Shown here piece after piece: positions 1-37,219 of a stretch of DNA of 38,255 bases; position 1 is the first letter of the stretch, and every line of letters starts with the position of its first letter. Both the position numbers and the translations under genes were made by a program. Source of the DNA: Mogibacterium sp. (GTDB lineage: Bacteria; Bacillota; Clostridia; Peptostreptococcales; Anaerovoracaceae); assembly GCA_017510725.1 (NCBI GenBank), contig JAFWMD010000085.1:1-38255 (forward strand), written 5' to 3'. The notes under the pieces are model-generated. The model ran no database searches. It saw only the letters and a list, made by a program, of their open reading frames with translations, and was not told the DNA's origin.

Positions 1-176
1 CGTGCGATGGAGCTGTATAAATAGATCCTGACTCATTATTATACTTTTCTGAAGAATCCGCAACTGCGGAGATGTGTTTGTATGCGTTGATTTGCTATAT
101 GCTTTTCAAAAAAGCTCTTGACACAGCATTAGCAAGATTTGTCGACTTCTTTCACTAGAATATTATCATAGAAAGT

Positions 177-30047: not shown

Positions 30048-30485
30048 TCACAGATGATGTTTGTGCCTTGAAGCCTTTATACGGCTCAGTGCCCTTGAGA
30101 GCTCCGCAGTTGCAAGAGACACATCCCTGTTTGAATTAGCCCTCTTAAGGGCCTCCCTTGCCTGTTCCTCAGCACGTCTTGCTCTGGCCTCGTCTATGTC
30201 TTCCGGATTCTCCGCGGTATCCACGAGTATCATGACCTCGTTATTCTCAACCTTGAGGAGGCCGTCAGACACGACCGAGATCTGTTTACCGGACATTCCG
30301 GCTTCTTTTGCCGCTTCGCCGGCCGGTACATATTCAACGATACCCGGTACAACGGCCATTATGAGGTTTGAATGGTACGCCAAAATACCGATGCTGCCCT
30401 CAGTCGTCATTAATGACACGGATTCAGCATCACAGTCATATACCATATGTTCACTTGCCATAAAATGCAGCTTGAACGTCGCCAT
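30048..30485 (-). CDS. atpC: ATP synthase F1 epsilon subunit
   Basis: 145 residues. The N-terminal beta sandwich is recognised by FMASEHMVYDCDAESVSLMTTEGSIGILAYHSNLI, and the C-terminal helical hairpin (DIDEARARRAEEQAREAL, then LATAELSRALSRIKAS) is complete. Epsilon couples gamma to the c-ring and can inhibit ATP hydrolysis. AGAGGA precedes the ATG. It is the last gene of the operon. Confidence 0.97.
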   Translation of the reverse strand: MATFKLHFMASEHMVYDCDAESVSLMTTEGSIGILAYHSNLIMAVVPGIVEYVPAGEAAKEAGMSGKQISVVSDGLLKVENNEVMILVDTAENPEDIDEARARRAEEQAREALKRANSNRDVSLATAELSRALSRIKASRHKHHL

Positions 30486-30509: not shown

Positions 30510-31907
<1,398 letters not shown>

Positions 31908-32807
31908 CTATCCGTTTTTACTTCTGAGGCTTCGCGCTCCGGATGATATTTCGGTTATCTCCTGTGTGATCGCGTTCTGTCTCAGATGGTTGAATTCAAG
32001 TGTGAGCTGGTCGAGCAGCTCGCTCGCGTTCTCGTTTGCTGAGTCCATGGCCATCATCCTCGCGCTCTGCTCGGACGAATAGCTGTTGACCAGCGCCGAA
32101 TAAACGTATCCTACAAGATACGACTGCATTATGCGCTCGAGTACAGTCTTCACATCCGGCTCATACTCGAACACTGTCGAAGCGTTTACATCAGTCTCTT
32201 CGCCTTCAGGCACAAAGTCGTCTCTGTCAAAAGGTATGAGCCTGTCATGCATGGCATTTCCAAAACTCAGGCCTCCCGAGAACTCCGTATAGCATACATA
32301 AAGCCTGTCAAACAGTCTGTCGTCGAAGTCATCGAGGAGCTCACGGGTTATGTCCCTGGCCATCGCAAGTGACGGCTGGTTCATCGAATGCATAAAGTCT
32401 TCGCAGACCTCTGTTCCCCTGGTCCTGAAAAATCTCCATCCGAAGTCCCCGACTACATACAGCCTGTACTCATCGCTCCTGTCCATCAGTGCAAGTGCTT
32501 CTTTAAGGACGTTCTGATTGTATGCTCCCGCAAGGCCCTTGTCACCGGTAATGACCAGAATGCCGTTACGGCCTCCGAACACGTTTTCATCGACTTCAGA
32601 GTCATAGTATCTGCTGGTGATGTCGCCTTCTATCGCGAACATCCTGCGGATCTCCTTTCTCAGAAGATCAAAATACGGCTTTGTTTCCTCAGCCTCCTTG
32701 CGTGCGCGCCGCATCTTGGTCGAAGAGATCAGATACATCGCATTAGTGATTTTCTGAGTATCGCTGACGCTCTTTATTCGGTTTTTTATTTCTTTGGTTG
32801 ATGGCAT
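31908..32807 (-). CDS. atpG: ATP synthase F1 gamma subunit
   Basis: 299 residues. The N-terminal helix IKNRIKSVSDTQKITNAMYLISSTKMRRA and the C-terminal helix with MMAMDSANENASELLDQLTLEFNHLRQNAITQEI form the central rotor coiled coil; GDKGLAGAYNQNV begins the Rossmann part. It starts three bases after atpA with only a weak ribosome binding site, so it is probably translationally coupled. Confidence 0.98.
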   Translation of the reverse strand: MPSTKEIKNRIKSVSDTQKITNAMYLISSTKMRRARKEAEETKPYFDLLRKEIRRMFAIEGDITSRYYDSEVDENVFGGRNGILVITGDKGLAGAYNQNVLKEALALMDRSDEYRLYVVGDFGWRFFRTRGTEVCEDFMHSMNQPSLAMARDITRELLDDFDDRLFDRLYVCYTEFSGGLSFGNAMHDRLIPFDRDDFVPEGEETDVNASTVFEYEPDVKTVLERIMQSYLVGYVYSALVNSYSSEQSARMMAMDSANENASELLDQLTLEFNHLRQNAITQEITEISSGARSLRSKNG

Positions 32808-32810
32808 TTT

Positions 32811-34556
32811 TTACGCCGCTTTATACTTTTCTCTATACTTAGCAGAGATATCGAGTATCTCCTTCCTGAGGTCGTCATCGAGTTTTCCTGTCTGATCGAT
32901 GCGGTCGCAGACATCCCTGTGATCCGATTCGAACGATTCAATGAGTCCTTCGATGAACTTTGGTACTTCCGGTGCAGGAATGCCCTGCATCGTGTGAGCA
33001 AGTGCCATAACGAGAGTTATTACCTGCTCGTGCTGCGACTTCGGCCTGTACTGCTTCTGTCTGAGCATGCGCATGAGGCCCTGGCCGTATTCGAGCTGGG
33101 ACTTCGTCTGGTCGTCGAGGTCTGAAGCGAACTGTGTGAACACTTCCATCTCGCGGTACTGCGCAAGGTCGATTCTCAGTGTTCCGGCAGCCTTCTTCAT
33201 GGCTTTCGTCTGAGCGTCGCCTCCTACACGGGAAACTGAAAGTCCTACGTTTACGGCAGGTCTCTGACCCGAGAAGAAGAGGTCTGACTCCAGGAAAATC
33301 TGACCGTCTGTGATCGAAATGATGTTAGTAGGGATGTATGCCGATACATCGCCCGCCTGCGTCTCGACTATAGGAAGCGCAGTTATGGAACCGCCGCCTA
33401 TTTCATCCGAAAGCCTTGCGGCTCTCTCGAGCAGTCTTGAGTGCAGGTAGAATACGTCGCCCGGGTACGCCTCACGGCCCGGCGATCTGTCGAGCAGCAG
33501 TGAGAGTGCACGGTATGCTACAGCGTGTTTCGAAAGGTCATCATAAACGATGAGCACATCCTTGCCCTGATGCATGAAATACTCGCCCATGGCGCATCCT
33601 GCGTATGGCGCGATGTACTGCAGCGGGGCAGGATCGCTGGCCGAAGCAGTAACTATGATAGTGTAATCCATTGCATCATGCTTTTTCAGAGTCTGCTGTA
33701 TCTGAACTACCGAAGAAGTCTTCTGGCCTATGGCTACGTAAATGCAAATGCAGTTCTTGCCCTTCTGGTTGATAATGGCATCGACTGCGATGGCTGTCTT
33801 TCCGGTCTGTCTGTCACCTATGATCAGCTCTCTCTGGCCCCTGCCGATAGGGAACATAGAGTCGATCGAGAAGATTCCCGTCTCAAGAGGCGTGTCTACA
33901 GGCTGTCTGTCAATGATAGCCGGAGCCTGAGCCTCTACAGGCATGTATCCCGAAGCTGTTATTTCTCCGAGGCCATCAACAGGTGAACCCAGAGAATCTA
34001 CTACTCTACCGAGGAAGTTCTCACCTACAGGTGTTCCTGCAGTCTTGCCCGTCCTCTTTACAGAGGATCCCTGAGTTACGCTCTCGTCGCTGCTGAAAAG
34101 CACGCAGCCGATCGTGTCCCTGCGGATGTCCTGAACCATTCCACGGACTCCGTCTGCGAACAGAAGGATCTCTCCGAATGTAGCATGCGGCAGTCCTGCG
34201 ACCGTCGCGATACCATCTCCGACAGTGATGACCTCTCCGACCTGTTCGACCATTGCCTCCGGCGTCCATGCCTGGATGCTCTCCTTGAGCAGCGGGATGA
34301 TATTGCCGTTGTTGGTAGGCACTTTTACGAGAGTGTCTCTCAGCTGACGGAACCTTCCGCCAACCGACCAGTCGTAAATATCGGAACCGACTTCAAGTCT
34401 GAATCCGCCCGGGAATGCATCGGACTTCTCCCATTTGAGAGGTACTTCTGCGTTGTATTTTTTCTTTAAAAACTGTCCGAACCTCGCCTTTTGAGCTTCG
34501 CTCGGCTCTGCAGCCGAGTAAATTACTGCGGTGAGGATCATTTCTTCGTTACTCAT
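32811..34556 (-). CDS. atpA: ATP synthase alpha subunit with N-terminal delta C-terminal domain fusion
   Basis: 581 residues, about 80 more than normal alpha. Residues 7-77 do not belong to alpha; they match the C-terminal domain of delta (AtpH): TAVIYSAAEPSEAQKARF, KKKYNAEVPL, PGGFRLEVGSDIYDWSVGGR and FRQLRDTL, equivalent to the GDxxxDxSVxGRLxxL end of delta. From about residue 84 a normal alpha follows, with NIIPLLKESIQAWTPE as its N-terminal helix, VGDGIATVAGL, the P-loop GDRQTGKTAIAVDAI and SVSRVGGDAQ. The ATG overlaps the atpF stop by four bases (ATGA), so no atpH lies between. The frame is continuous without slippage sites. Confidence 0.97.
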   Translation of the reverse strand: MSNEEMILTAVIYSAAEPSEAQKARFGQFLKKKYNAEVPLKWEKSDAFPGGFRLEVGSDIYDWSVGGRFRQLRDTLVKVPTNNGNIIPLLKESIQAWTPEAMVEQVGEVITVGDGIATVAGLPHATFGEILLFADGVRGMVQDIRRDTIGCVLFSSDESVTQGSSVKRTGKTAGTPVGENFLGRVVDSLGSPVDGLGEITASGYMPVEAQAPAIIDRQPVDTPLETGIFSIDSMFPIGRGQRELIIGDRQTGKTAIAVDAIINQKGKNCICIYVAIGQKTSSVVQIQQTLKKHDAMDYTIIVTASASDPAPLQYIAPYAGCAMGEYFMHQGKDVLIVYDDLSKHAVAYRALSLLLDRSPGREAYPGDVFYLHSRLLERAARLSDEIGGGSITALPIVETQAGDVSAYIPTNIISITDGQIFLESDLFFSGQRPAVNVGLSVSRVGGDAQTKAMKKAAGTLRIDLAQYREMEVFTQFASDLDDQTKSQLEYGQGLMRMLRQKQYRPKSQHEQVITLVMALAHTMQGIPAPEVPKFIEGLIESFESDHRDVCDRIDQTGKLDDDLRKEILDISAKYREKYKAA

Positions 34557-35044
34557 TTATCTGCCTCCTCCGCAGCATCAAGGAACTGATCGAAAGCATC
34601 CGAAGCGGTCTGCTCGAGAGTGAGTTTCTCCATCGCGTCGGTGACCATTCCTGTGATCTCCTTCTGCGCAGATGCGATGATCTCGTTCTTCTCTCTTTCT
34701 GCCTCGCCGCGGGCATCCGAAATGATCTTCTCGGCTTCGCCGCGCGCCGCCGCAAGTCTCCGTTCTCTTTCTGCCTCGATCTCCTTGCTCATCCTGCTCT
34801 TCTCGGACCTGACTTCTTCGTCGAATTCTTTTTCTTTCTTCTCATAGGAAGCCTTGCTGTTCTCGGCATCAGCCAGAGCCTGCTCTGCTCTGCTGTCCAT
34901 GTCAGCATAATGAGCCTCTCTGCCTTCCATGAAATTCTTCACAGGCTTATAGAGAAGTATATAAAGAGCTCCGAAGAGTATGGTGAAGTTGAACAGGTGC
35001 AGCAGTATTTGCTGCCAGTCTATGTTAAGTGGTACTCCTGTCAT
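34553..35044 (-). CDS. atpF: ATP synthase F0 b subunit
   Basis: 163 residues: one N-terminal membrane helix (ILLHLFNFTILFGALYILLY), the conserved YKPVKNFMEGRE segment and a long charged helix rich in AEAEKIISDARGEAE-type repeats, forming the peripheral stalk. The C-terminus (TLEQTASDAFDQFLDAAEE) is where delta normally binds. It has normal length and is not fused to delta as in Mycobacterium. GGGAG precedes the ATG. Confidence 0.96.
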   Translation of the reverse strand: MTGVPLNIDWQQILLHLFNFTILFGALYILLYKPVKNFMEGREAHYADMDSRAEQALADAENSKASYEKKEKEFDEEVRSEKSRMSKEIEAERERRLAAARGEAEKIISDARGEAEREKNEIIASAQKEITGMVTDAMEKLTLEQTASDAFDQFLDAAEEADK

Positions 35045-35091: not shown

Positions 35092-35466
35092 CTAAAGAAC
35101 GAATATGATCAGGATAACCGTGAGCAGTGCGTAGATGACTACTGTCTCTATGAATACGAGACCGAGCATGAAGCTTGTACGGATCTTGCCGTCTGCTTCC
35201 GGCTGCCTTGAAATACCTTCCGAAGTCTTGGCACCGAAAATACCCATTCCGATGGCGCCTCCGCATGCAGCGAGTCCGATAGCGATTCCTGCAGCTATGG
35301 CTTTGAGACCTGTAGTGGTAGCGGCAGCAGCAACTGCTGCGTCACCGGCAGCTGCGGCATCGCCGCTGTCAGCGAATACTGCGGCCGTCAGGATCATCAT
35401 CATGGCGGCAGCGACCATTGCGAGCACGATTGCCATTCTTCTCAGTTTCTTTGCATTGAGGTTCAT
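35092..35466 (-). CDS. atpE: ATP synthase F0 c subunit with signal-peptide-like N-terminus
   Basis: 124 residues instead of the usual 70-90. Residues 1-32 look like a cleavable signal (KKLRR, a hydrophobic core, AVFA), followed by an Ala-rich linker (DSGDAAAAGDAAVAAAATTTG). The two c helices then follow, with RQPE loop (87-90) and ion-binding Glu107 in VFIETVVIY. The Na+-type inner-helix Gln is Met74 here, but Thr108 and Tyr112 recall Na+ binders, so ion choice is unclear. AAAGGAG precedes the ATG, after a 198-base structured gap. Confidence 0.95.
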   Translation of the reverse strand: MNLNAKKLRRMAIVLAMVAAAMMMILTAAVFADSGDAAAAGDAAVAAAATTTGLKAIAAGIAIGLAACGGAIGMGIFGAKTSEGISRQPEADGKIRTSFMLGLVFIETVVIYALLTVILIIFVL

Positions 35467-35664: not shown

Positions 35665-36531
35665 TTAAGCTGATTGTTCTTTTACTACTGTTACACGTTT
35701 TTTGCCGCGTCTCTTTTTCTCTTTAGGCGGTTTCACGACTTTTTCGGATACTTCTCCGTAGAAGAGTGATGTCAGCATGGTAAGTACGTATGCCTGGATC
35801 AGTGCGTGGAGCAGTGTAAACAGTACTCCTACTATGACCGGCACAACGTAGCTCATTGCCGTGTAGTAATAGACGAGCTCGGTGACCAGCGCTCCCGAGA
35901 TCAGGGCTCCGAAAAGTCGGAAGCTGAGTGAAAGCGGAAGCGAGAAGTCCTTGAGTGTCTTGCCGATGCCCTTGACTCCGTTGCCGACGATTCCTCCTGA
36001 CATGATCACAAGATATGACAGGCAGCCCATCATGATGGCCCCGTTTACATCAGCCATCGGTGCCGGAAGTGATATCGGGTGGCCTCCCGTGGTCATCACC
36101 TGAACACCCAGGAGCTCAAACAGCGTGCCTGTAAAGATGTATGAACCGGCCGCAAATATGTACGCTCCAAGAAAGCCGTTAATATGTGAATTGCTCTTCG
36201 CCATTCCGTCAAAGATGCCGACAACAGTCTCAAGCACGAGCTGGAACTTTCCCGGTACCAGCTTAAAGCGCGGTATCACGAAGATCCTGCATATAAGTGC
36301 AAAGATGATCATGATGCCCGACACAATAAAACCTGAAATCAGTGCCGGATTAACATCTTTGAGTCCGAACAGGCTGACCTTGTTGACGTCGTGCATTACG
36401 GCGTCTCGCATAACGGTCTGAATGGACTCTTCTTCTCCTCCCCCGCCGCCGGTAAGTATGGATCCAACCATGAATACCAGCGCGATGGCTGAGAAGAACA
36501 GTATTGCTTTTTTACGCTCTTGTTTAGTCAT
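35665..36531 (-). CDS. atpB: ATP synthase F0 a subunit
   Basis: 288 residues from the ATG at 36531, with AAAGGAG upstream; the open frame nine codons further overlaps that site. Membrane helices include FSAIALVFMVGSIL and the C-terminal pair, with the essential Arg in PLSLSFRLFGALISGALV. VPVIVGVLFTLLHALIQAYVLTMLTSLFYGE is the last helix. The C-terminal tail is rich in Lys/Arg (PPKEKKRRGKKRVTVVK) and longer than in E. coli. It is the first gene of the operon; no atpI is seen upstream. Confidence 0.97.
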   Translation of the reverse strand: MTKQERKKAILFFSAIALVFMVGSILTGGGGGEEESIQTVMRDAVMHDVNKVSLFGLKDVNPALISGFIVSGIMIIFALICRIFVIPRFKLVPGKFQLVLETVVGIFDGMAKSNSHINGFLGAYIFAAGSYIFTGTLFELLGVQVMTTGGHPISLPAPMADVNGAIMMGCLSYLVIMSGGIVGNGVKGIGKTLKDFSLPLSLSFRLFGALISGALVTELVYYYTAMSYVVPVIVGVLFTLLHALIQAYVLTMLTSLFYGEVSEKVVKPPKEKKRRGKKRVTVVKEQSA

Positions 36532-36608
36532 AAGCGTATACTCCTTTAACAATGCCATCTCTCCTGACCGTTATGATCAGTTGCGATGGCAGCTTTCCTA
36601 ACTGAATA

Positions 36609-36797: not shown

Positions 36798-37154
36798 TTA
36801 ACTGATATGCGTCAGTTCATCTTCCGCGGCAACTCGTATCTCCTCCATCACCGAAAGCTGTTTTTCTACACTTTCAGCGTTATCACGTACCTGTATGTCC
36901 GCATTGCCCGCTTCATCAAACCTGATCATGGTGCAGGGCACAGGAATAGGTTCAATGAAAAAGAAAGCTCCCACGCCTGCAATTATGATTCCTTCAGGGT
37001 GTCTGCATACATAACTTTTCAGCTTCCCCGGCTGTGAAAAAAACCTTACATGGCGAAGCTGTCCCGAGGCATCATAGAATGACCTTTTTACATCAGGGTC
37101 GTCCACCAGCAAAGCCCCCTCAAGAATATGTCCGTTTATCTTTATATCCTTCAT
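36798..37154 (-). CDS. Hypothetical protein (118 aa)
   Basis: 118 residues from the ATG at 37154 (AAAAGGA just upstream); a TTG thirteen codons earlier is an alternative. The protein seems to be a beta-rich domain: INGHILEGALLVDDPDVKRSFYD, HVRFFSQPGKLKSYVCRHPEG, a hydrophobic IIIAGVGAFFFIEPIPVPCTM stretch too polar at its end to be a clear membrane helix, then FDEAGNADIQVRDNAESVEKQLSVMEEI. No family is recognised. It is transcribed from a promoter overlapped by an inverted repeat, divergent from the XRE gene. Confidence 0.65.
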   Translation of the reverse strand: MKDIKINGHILEGALLVDDPDVKRSFYDASGQLRHVRFFSQPGKLKSYVCRHPEGIIIAGVGAFFFIEPIPVPCTMIRFDEAGNADIQVRDNAESVEKQLSVMEEIRVAAEDELTHIS

Positions 37155-37219
37155 CTTTTCCTTTTTAGCGTATATCAGCAGTCCGAACAGCAATGATCCT
37201 TATGTATAAAACCTTTGTG

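What the first reader, a model, noticed from the sequence alone, without database searches (positions are those of the whole stretch)
32811..35044. ATP synthase operon without atpH; delta C-terminal domain fused to the N-terminus of alpha
AtpA has about 77 extra N-terminal residues that match the C-terminal domain of delta (SAAEPSEAQ, PGGFRLEVGSDIYDWSVGGR), followed by a complete alpha. atpF and atpA overlap by four bases, so there is no lost gene between them. The delta N-terminal helical bundle, which normally caps the three alpha N-termini, is not encoded in this operon. F1 has three alpha subunits, so each complex would carry three delta-C domains but only one or two could meet the b stalk. 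This differs from the b-delta fusion of mycobacteria. I am not aware of a description, but cannot search.
Basis: partly seen in the sequence, partly recalled or inferred. Interest (0 to 1): 0.92.

Follow-up and report, generated by a model that had tools for sequence, protein, structure and literature searches.

The report
ATP synthase built for several stalks
In this gut bacterium the ATP-making enzyme has half of its stator clamp (delta) welded onto each of its three alpha subunits and the other half missing, the same layout that was engineered in 2025 to give an ATP synthase with up to three stator stalks that works at low membrane voltage.

Summary
Confirmed. [quoted passage not shown] No other delta is found in the draft genome. 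36 of 47 genomes of the genus carry the fusion, so it is no sequencing error, and the delta part is under purifying selection. The layout is not unknown: Ueno et al. [quoted passage not shown] The window protein is colinear with 9jc1 across the junction. Added here: a large clade of such operons in gut Clostridia, not inherited within this genus's own lineage; more than one origin of the fusion on the alpha tree; genomes with both a normal and a fused operon; possible intermediates (free delta-CTD, partial NTD, doubled CTD). Best reading: a natural multi-stalk, low-gear ATP synthase. The fusion is near certain; stalk number is inferred from the engineered enzyme, and I found no measurement for a natural one.

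The parts
34326..34556 (-). delta (OSCP) C-terminal domain, residues 1-77 of AtpA; stands where atpH would be
   Evidence: PF00213 profile 98-172; hhalign E 2.7e-10; predicted strand-helix-strand-strand-strand-helix domain matching ATP synthase stator chains; pN/pS 0.25
34302..34325 (-). short linker, residues 78-85, joining delta CTD to the alpha N-terminal helix (predicted helix 86-96)
   Evidence: prediction; colinear with engineered 9jc1, whose linker is 3 residues longer; pN/pS 0.13 over residues 78-88
32811..34301 (-). complete alpha subunit, residues 86-581 of AtpA, and stop codon
   Evidence: PF02874, PF00006, PF00306; TIGR00962 734.7 bits
34553..35044 (-). atpF (b subunit, 163 aa), overlaps atpA by 4 bases; no OSCP match listed
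   Evidence: PF00430 E 2.9e-18
35092..35466 (-). atpE (c subunit, 124 aa, long N-terminal extension)
   Evidence: PF00137 residues 57-120
35665..36558 (-). atpB (a subunit, 297 aa, N- and C-terminal extensions)
   Evidence: PF00119 residues 83-267
31908..32807 (-). atpG (gamma)
   Evidence: PF00231 E 2.5e-82
30510..31895 (-). atpD (beta)
   Evidence: PF00006 E 3.1e-74
30048..30485 (-). atpC (epsilon, both domains)
   Evidence: PF02823 and PF00401

Best explanation
This is a natural F-type ATP synthase in which delta was reduced to its C-terminal, b-binding domain and fused to the N-terminus of alpha. Each alpha3-beta3 head therefore carries three equivalent stalk docks, and no delta NTD sits on the three-fold axis. 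Shown here: the fusion, the missing NTD, conservation, purifying selection, presence in several lineages. Inferred from the engineered PS3 enzyme: up to three b2 stalks dock, each bringing its own a-subunit to the one c-ring, so protons per turn rise to (number of c) x (number of a). The enzyme would then run in low gear, making ATP at a membrane voltage too low for a one-stalk enzyme, or in reverse pumping more ions per ATP against a smaller gradient. That would suit fermenters with weak ion pumps (an Rnf/Nqr-family protein, and in most of the fused genus members a decarboxylase beta subunit of the oxaloacetate decarboxylase type).
For: Colinearity with 9jc1_I across the junction, window 10-130 to chain 6-130, E 1.8e-9. 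Engineered twin: a- and b-subunits 2.2 and 1.8 times wild type, H+/ATP 5.8 against 3.0, up to three stalks, the NTD named as what limits the number to one. No other delta in the own genome, and no separate delta in any of the 36 fused genomes of the genus, 16 of which are at least 90% complete and at most 5% contaminated. Start codons near the alpha start with ribosome-site energy of -6 or below in only 9 of 68 loci, so alpha without delta-CTD is not generally expected. Purifying selection on delta-CTD and linker in 28 genes, with synonymous sites near saturation. Fused alphas are not one clade, p-AU 0.0085. Rnf/Nqr-family protein in 45 of 47 genus genomes; OAD-beta in 31 of 36 fused, 0 of 3 separate-delta, 2 of 8 without delta match.
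Against: I found no stalk count for any natural fusion. In the engineered enzyme about half of the particles had one stalk and only 8% three. Predicted ribosome-site strength of atpB and atpF is no higher than in separate-delta operons (medians -8.8 and -8.2 against -8.8 and -8.6 kcal/mol; 63 and 65 against 10 and 11 loci), so no sign of a raised a and b supply. The OAD-beta association may follow genome size and ancestry.
Confidence: 0.55

Rival explanations
1. Single-stalk enzyme with a covalent clamp: only one of the three delta-CTD domains holds a b2 dimer, because Fo takes a single a-subunit or a and b are limiting. The fusion simply replaces the anchoring role of the lost NTD.
For: One-stalk particles were the largest class (51%) even in the engineered enzyme. 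No raised ribosome-site strength for a or b. The a subunit here is 297 aa with the Pfam match at 83-267, and its extra ends could limit packing (inference).
Against: In the engineered enzyme the NTD is held to be what kept the number at one, and the biochemistry gave about two stalks on average.
Confidence: 0.3
2. Mainly a reverse-running ion pump: the multi-stalk form is kept to move many ions per ATP at low voltage in fermenters, not to make ATP.
For: 11 of 21 multi-hit genomes examined have a full-length separate delta as well as a fused alpha, which suggests split duties.
Against: In the fused genomes of this genus no separate delta was found, so no second complete standard F-type enzyme is indicated, and Rnf/Nqr-family and decarboxylase-type pumps could feed synthesis. 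The two directions are not exclusive.
Confidence: 0.1
3. The missing delta NTD is encoded elsewhere by an unrecognised protein, giving an ordinary one-stalk enzyme with delta split in two.
For: The own genome is 84.5% complete. Lone delta-NTD-like frames of 109-164 aa exist in five genomes of family f67.
Against: No OSCP match besides fused frames in the 36 fused genus genomes. The five NTD-only genomes gave only distant rotary-ATPase hits and no F-type alpha, so they do not pair with a fused alpha.
Confidence: 0.04
4. Artefact: frame error or mis-assembly joining atpH and atpA.
For: The window is from a draft of 91 contigs.
Against: Same frame in 36 of 47 genus genomes and in a one-contig genome of another family, G089; G684 and G487, also one contig, by frame length only.
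Confidence: 0.01

Closest known systems
Engineered Bacillus PS3 delta-deltaN-alpha FoF1 (Ueno et al. 2025, PMC12229609; PDB 9jc1)
   Same: delta CTD fused to the N-terminus of alpha, NTD deleted, rest of the subunit set kept; colinear across the junction, linker 3 residues longer there
   Different: Engineered; epsilon C-terminal domain removed there but present here; stalk number measured there, not here
Natural delta-alpha fusions named in the same paper: Acidaminococcus fermentans, UniProt G4Q3K6 and A0A1I2C5T3
   Same: as described there: delta fused to alpha and, for A. fermentans, the delta NTD missing; predicted there to be multi-stalk
   Different: Acidaminococcus belongs to another class (Negativicutes, recalled). 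The lineage of the other two accessions could not be looked up, so one may belong to this clade. The present clade is from Anaerovoracaceae, Lachnospiraceae and other Clostridia
Mycobacterial b-delta fusion (PDB 7jg5)
   Same: delta joined to another stator subunit; its CTD is the top sequence hit of residues 1-80 (E 0.0029)
   Different: delta on one b (recalled: still one stalk); here only the CTD, on alpha
N-type ATPase
   Same: no separate delta gene seen in the N-type-like operons L294-L296; in L295 and L296 the long b (281, 285 aa) has a weak OSCP-CTD match (22.3 and 20.8 bits, cut-off 22.3)
   Different: beta-epsilon first gene order (order in print), CTD on b not on alpha; window alpha scores 609.5 against a cut-off of 750.5 for TIGR03324

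Membership tests
delta-deltaN-alpha F-type ATP synthase (kind described by Ueno et al. 2025) | delta/OSCP C-terminal domain in frame at the N-terminus of a complete alpha | tested here: met
delta-deltaN-alpha F-type ATP synthase (kind described by Ueno et al. 2025) | delta N-terminal domain absent from the operon and no separate atpH in the genome | tested here: met
   one PF00213 place in the draft genome (84.5% complete); no separate delta in the 36 fused genus genomes
delta-deltaN-alpha F-type ATP synthase (kind described by Ueno et al. 2025) | junction and linker length close to the engineered fusion | tested here: met
   phmmer 10-130 to 9jc1_I 6-130
delta-deltaN-alpha F-type ATP synthase (kind described by Ueno et al. 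2025) | more than one b2 stalk and a-subunit per complex | not testable with these tools
   needs purified enzyme; no complex prediction on hand
delta-deltaN-alpha F-type ATP synthase (kind described by Ueno et al. 2025) | H+/ATP above c/3 | not testable with these tools
   needs proteoliposomes
F-type ATP synthase | a, c, b, alpha, gamma, beta, epsilon encoded together | tested here: met
mycobacterial b-delta type | delta fused to b | tested here: not met
   no OSCP match listed for atpF up to E 1
N-type ATPase | operon begins beta-epsilon and alpha passes TIGR03324 | tested here: not met
   order a-c-b-alpha-gamma-beta-epsilon; 609.5 bits under cut-off 750.5

The most novel reading that the evidence does not exclude
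Natural ATP synthases with two or three stators and a-subunits are a widespread, repeatedly evolved and horizontally traded low-gear enzyme of anaerobes. The ion-to-ATP ratio would then be set in nature by stator number as well as by c-ring size, and some bacteria would keep a one-stalk and a multi-stalk enzyme side by side as two gears.
Probability: 0.4. Interest if true: 0.93.

Novelty: new member of a known kind. Interest (0 to 1): 0.68.

Why it matters
Ueno et al. [quoted passage not shown] Their engineered enzyme showed that this is not a hard limit. If the natural fusions assemble several stalks, H+/ATP can be changed by stator number, which would revise energy budgets of fermenting gut bacteria. 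The clade found here offers many natural enzymes, separate-delta operons in the same genus, and genomes with both forms, so the question becomes directly testable.

Tried and rejected
Sequencing error or mis-assembly: rejected by recurrence. Alternative unfused alpha by an internal start: start codons at positions equal to 74-93 occur in 36 of 68 loci, but with ribosome-site energy of -6 or below in only 9, and as ATG in 3; not general. Boosted a and b translation as a sign of extra stalks: not seen; gamma was weaker in fused operons (median -3.0 against -8.8), unexplained and perhaps only because it follows alpha closely (exploratory, 12 hand-picked separate-type operons, two of them the odd cases L124 and L136). 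Sodium or proton: the window-clade c subunits that I looked at lack the glutamine of the Na+ motif (motif recalled, aligned by eye, some sequences cut short); left open. Whole-chain structure comparison covered alpha (rows mostly span 102-581), so the domain was predicted alone.

Papers: searches for natural multi-stalk enzymes or delta-alpha fusions listed PMC12229609 as the only paper that I judged, by titles and abstract starts, to be on the subject; lists were cut (20 of 301, 20 of 169, 25 of 26 and 15 of 22 shown), and the library lacks most subscription journals. (entry code as a word) was useless. PMC12229609: abstract and introduction, passages, discussion and three results sections seen, not the whole text, no supplement. 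PMC5709465: 12 of 25 passages, which name b-delta fusions and no delta-alpha fusion. PMC5376962: one passage.

Caveats: fusion in the class count was judged by frame length except for G317, G274, G201 and G431; G234 and G420 likewise. The 67 loci were found with junction-bearing patterns, so that all are fused is partly built in, and many are the same contigs as the genus genomes. Group B of the AU test was chosen after seeing the tree. Trees used LG+G4 without the mixture model; rows were thinned at 90% identity and some cut or duplicate loci dropped before the tree. Alignment A2 was not used further.

Full report
Observation. The window holds an F-type ATP synthase operon on the minus strand in the order a, c, b, alpha, gamma, beta, epsilon. 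There is no atpH between atpF and atpA; the two genes overlap by 4 bases (34553-34556). AtpA is 581 aa. Its residues 3-76 match the second half of OSCP/delta (PF00213 profile 98-172 of 172, E 1.4e-9, above the curated cut-off) and residues 103-571 hold the alpha domains. PF00213 hits the draft genome once, at this place.

Is it real and selected? In the genus, 47 genomes (the own included) were searched: 36 have the fused frame, 3 (G005, G013, G061) have a full-length separate delta, and 8 have no delta match (operons of the 36 inspected). For those 8, alpha was sought: five (G062, G028, G065, G011, G035) gave only distant hits that look like V-type or other rotary ATPase subunits, G032 gave a good partial alpha (66% identity over residues 224-563), and G002 and G033 one poor hit each. 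In 28 fused genes pN/pS (synonymous sites near saturation) is 0.25 for the delta CTD, 0.13 for the linker stretch, and 0.19, 0.07 and 0.17 for the N, nucleotide-binding and C parts of alpha. A scan of named genomes with a profile of delta CTD plus junction confirmed 67 loci; all 67 are fused, which the junction-bearing patterns favour, and many are the same contigs as the genus genomes. Record titles name Mogibacterium sp., Candidatus Crickella, Candidatus Gallimonas, Lachnospiraceae, Eubacterium, Eubacteriaceae, one Acholeplasmatales and unnamed Clostridia; many name goat, sheep, deer or buffalo gut sites.

Known counterpart. Ueno et al. 2025 (PMC12229609; parts seen) fused the delta CTD to alpha in Bacillus PS3 after deleting the NTD. 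They found 15, 51, 26 and 8% of particles with 0, 1, 2 and 3 stalks, each stalk with an a-subunit, and H+/ATP of 5.8 against 3.0. They conclude that the NTD on the three-fold axis limits the enzyme to one stalk, and add that the Acidaminococcus fermentans operon has the fusion without the NTD, that two further accessions are similar, and that such enzymes are probably multi-stalk. The window protein aligns with their chain 9jc1_I straight through the junction. So the kind is described; the lineage and extent are what is added here, subject to the two accessions that I could not place.

How common. Of 398 phylum genomes, 31 genomes (nearly all weak hits, and all with a best E above 1e-28) and 21 further multi-hit genomes were listed place by place: 24 besides the window's own carry a delta-CTD-alpha frame, in 11 family codes (f15, f18, f24, f41, f42, f59, f67, f87, f114, f123, f151). 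One of them, G431, keeps part of the NTD; G247 is cut by its contig end; G234 and G420 are judged by frame length. The 58 genomes without a match were not examined except six, so this is a lower bound. In the class, 393 genomes were searched with the junction profile: 54 match at E 1e-5 or better and 28 of these, besides the own, lie in frames of 509 aa or more, in 12 family codes (by frame length except for G317, G274, G201 and G431). None of the 7 listed genomes of other genera in the same family matched. 11 of the 21 multi-hit genomes have both a full-length separate delta and a fused alpha (G115, G153, G183, G234, G258, G420, G324, G366, G201, G274, G431).

Origins. On an alpha-core tree of 60 rows without the delta part (32 fused, 28 separate), the window's fused clade has support 100/100, the label needs 6 changes, and 0% of 200 bootstrap trees need only one (the fused label there includes the full-length fusion G047). 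The 125-row quick tree also needs 6, though it places family f42 elsewhere. Holding the 31 fusions without G047 as one clade is rejected, p-AU 0.0085; without G464 and G176 it is not, p-AU 0.088. So more than one origin under this model, unless some lineages split the gene again. The three separate-delta species of this genus sit with the rest of their order (100/99), and holding them and the same-family G338 together with the fused genus members is rejected, p-AU 6.2e-5. The simplest reading is that the genus received the fused operon from outside, replacing its own; since some genomes carry both types, loss of one of two old copies is not excluded. Omp85 is found in 12 of 23 genomes tested, namely every tested member of the second fused group, G176 and G464, and not in G317, G201, G274, G431, the four of family f42, G047, G329 or G111: fusions occur in Bacillota with and without Omp85.

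Possible intermediates. G329 has b (164 aa), a free 80-aa delta CTD and alpha as three overlapping genes (PF00213 profile 113-172). G431, in the basal branch of the window clade, has profile positions 26-171 fused to alpha. G111 has a 299-aa delta with two CTD matches. G047 has a nearly whole delta (3-171) fused to alpha. G329 and G111 fall next to the window clade but on long branches with weak support. Each of these four states rests on one genome.

Mechanism. Shown: three delta CTDs per alpha trio and no detected NTD. Inferred: three docks, up to three b2 plus a units, H+/turn = c x a as in the engineered enzyme. Genus genomes have an Rnf/Nqr-family membrane protein in 45 of 47 and an oxaloacetate-decarboxylase-beta-type protein in 33 of 47 (31 of 36 fused, 0 of 3 separate, 2 of 8 without delta match), that is, likely pumps with small energy steps; the link to the fusion is a correlation within related species. 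Against: atpB and atpF ribosome sites are not stronger than in separate-delta operons, and I found no natural stalk count.

Verdict. The claim of novelty does not, and the limit of one or two usable docks is contradicted by the engineered enzyme. What deserves attention is that gut Clostridia use this layout widely and seem to exchange it, which makes natural multi-stalk ATP synthase a testable proposition.

Noticed in passing
L136:4962-5204 (-), genome G329: Stand-alone 80-aa delta CTD gene between b and alpha, overlapping both (8 and 4 bases): NTD lost without fusion, a possible intermediate.
   Followed up: partly
L124:4417-5316 (+), genome G111: Delta frame of 299 aa with one NTD-containing and one further CTD match; could in principle hold two b2 stalks.
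   Followed up: partly
L119 (G047) and L288 (G431): Alpha fused to a nearly whole delta (703 aa frame) and to a delta with a partial NTD (691 aa frame).
   Followed up: partly
L289, L290, L291 (G093, G200, G171): Small proteins of about 110-170 aa with a delta-CTD-like domain, two or three near each other and outside an atp operon; function unknown to me.
   Followed up: no
L129, L132 (G210, G303) and one search places in G282, G385, G403: Lone delta-NTD-like frames of 109-164 aa (two with a stop inside the match) in genomes where only distant rotary ATPase hits and no F-type alpha were found.
   Followed up: partly
L294, L295, L296: Operons in N-ATPase-like order whose long b (281-285 aa) has an OSCP-CTD match: at the Pfam cut-off in L295, below it in L296, and in L294 over it only with its neighbours in the frame.
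   Followed up: partly
window 35092-35466 and 35665-36558: c with a long N-terminal extension and a with N- and C-terminal extensions; similar lengths in much of the clade but not in L286 and L288 of its basal branch.
   Followed up: partly
window 36798-37193 (-): 131-aa ORF upstream of atpB without Pfam (E up to 1) or NCBIfam (E up to 0.01) match.
   Followed up: no
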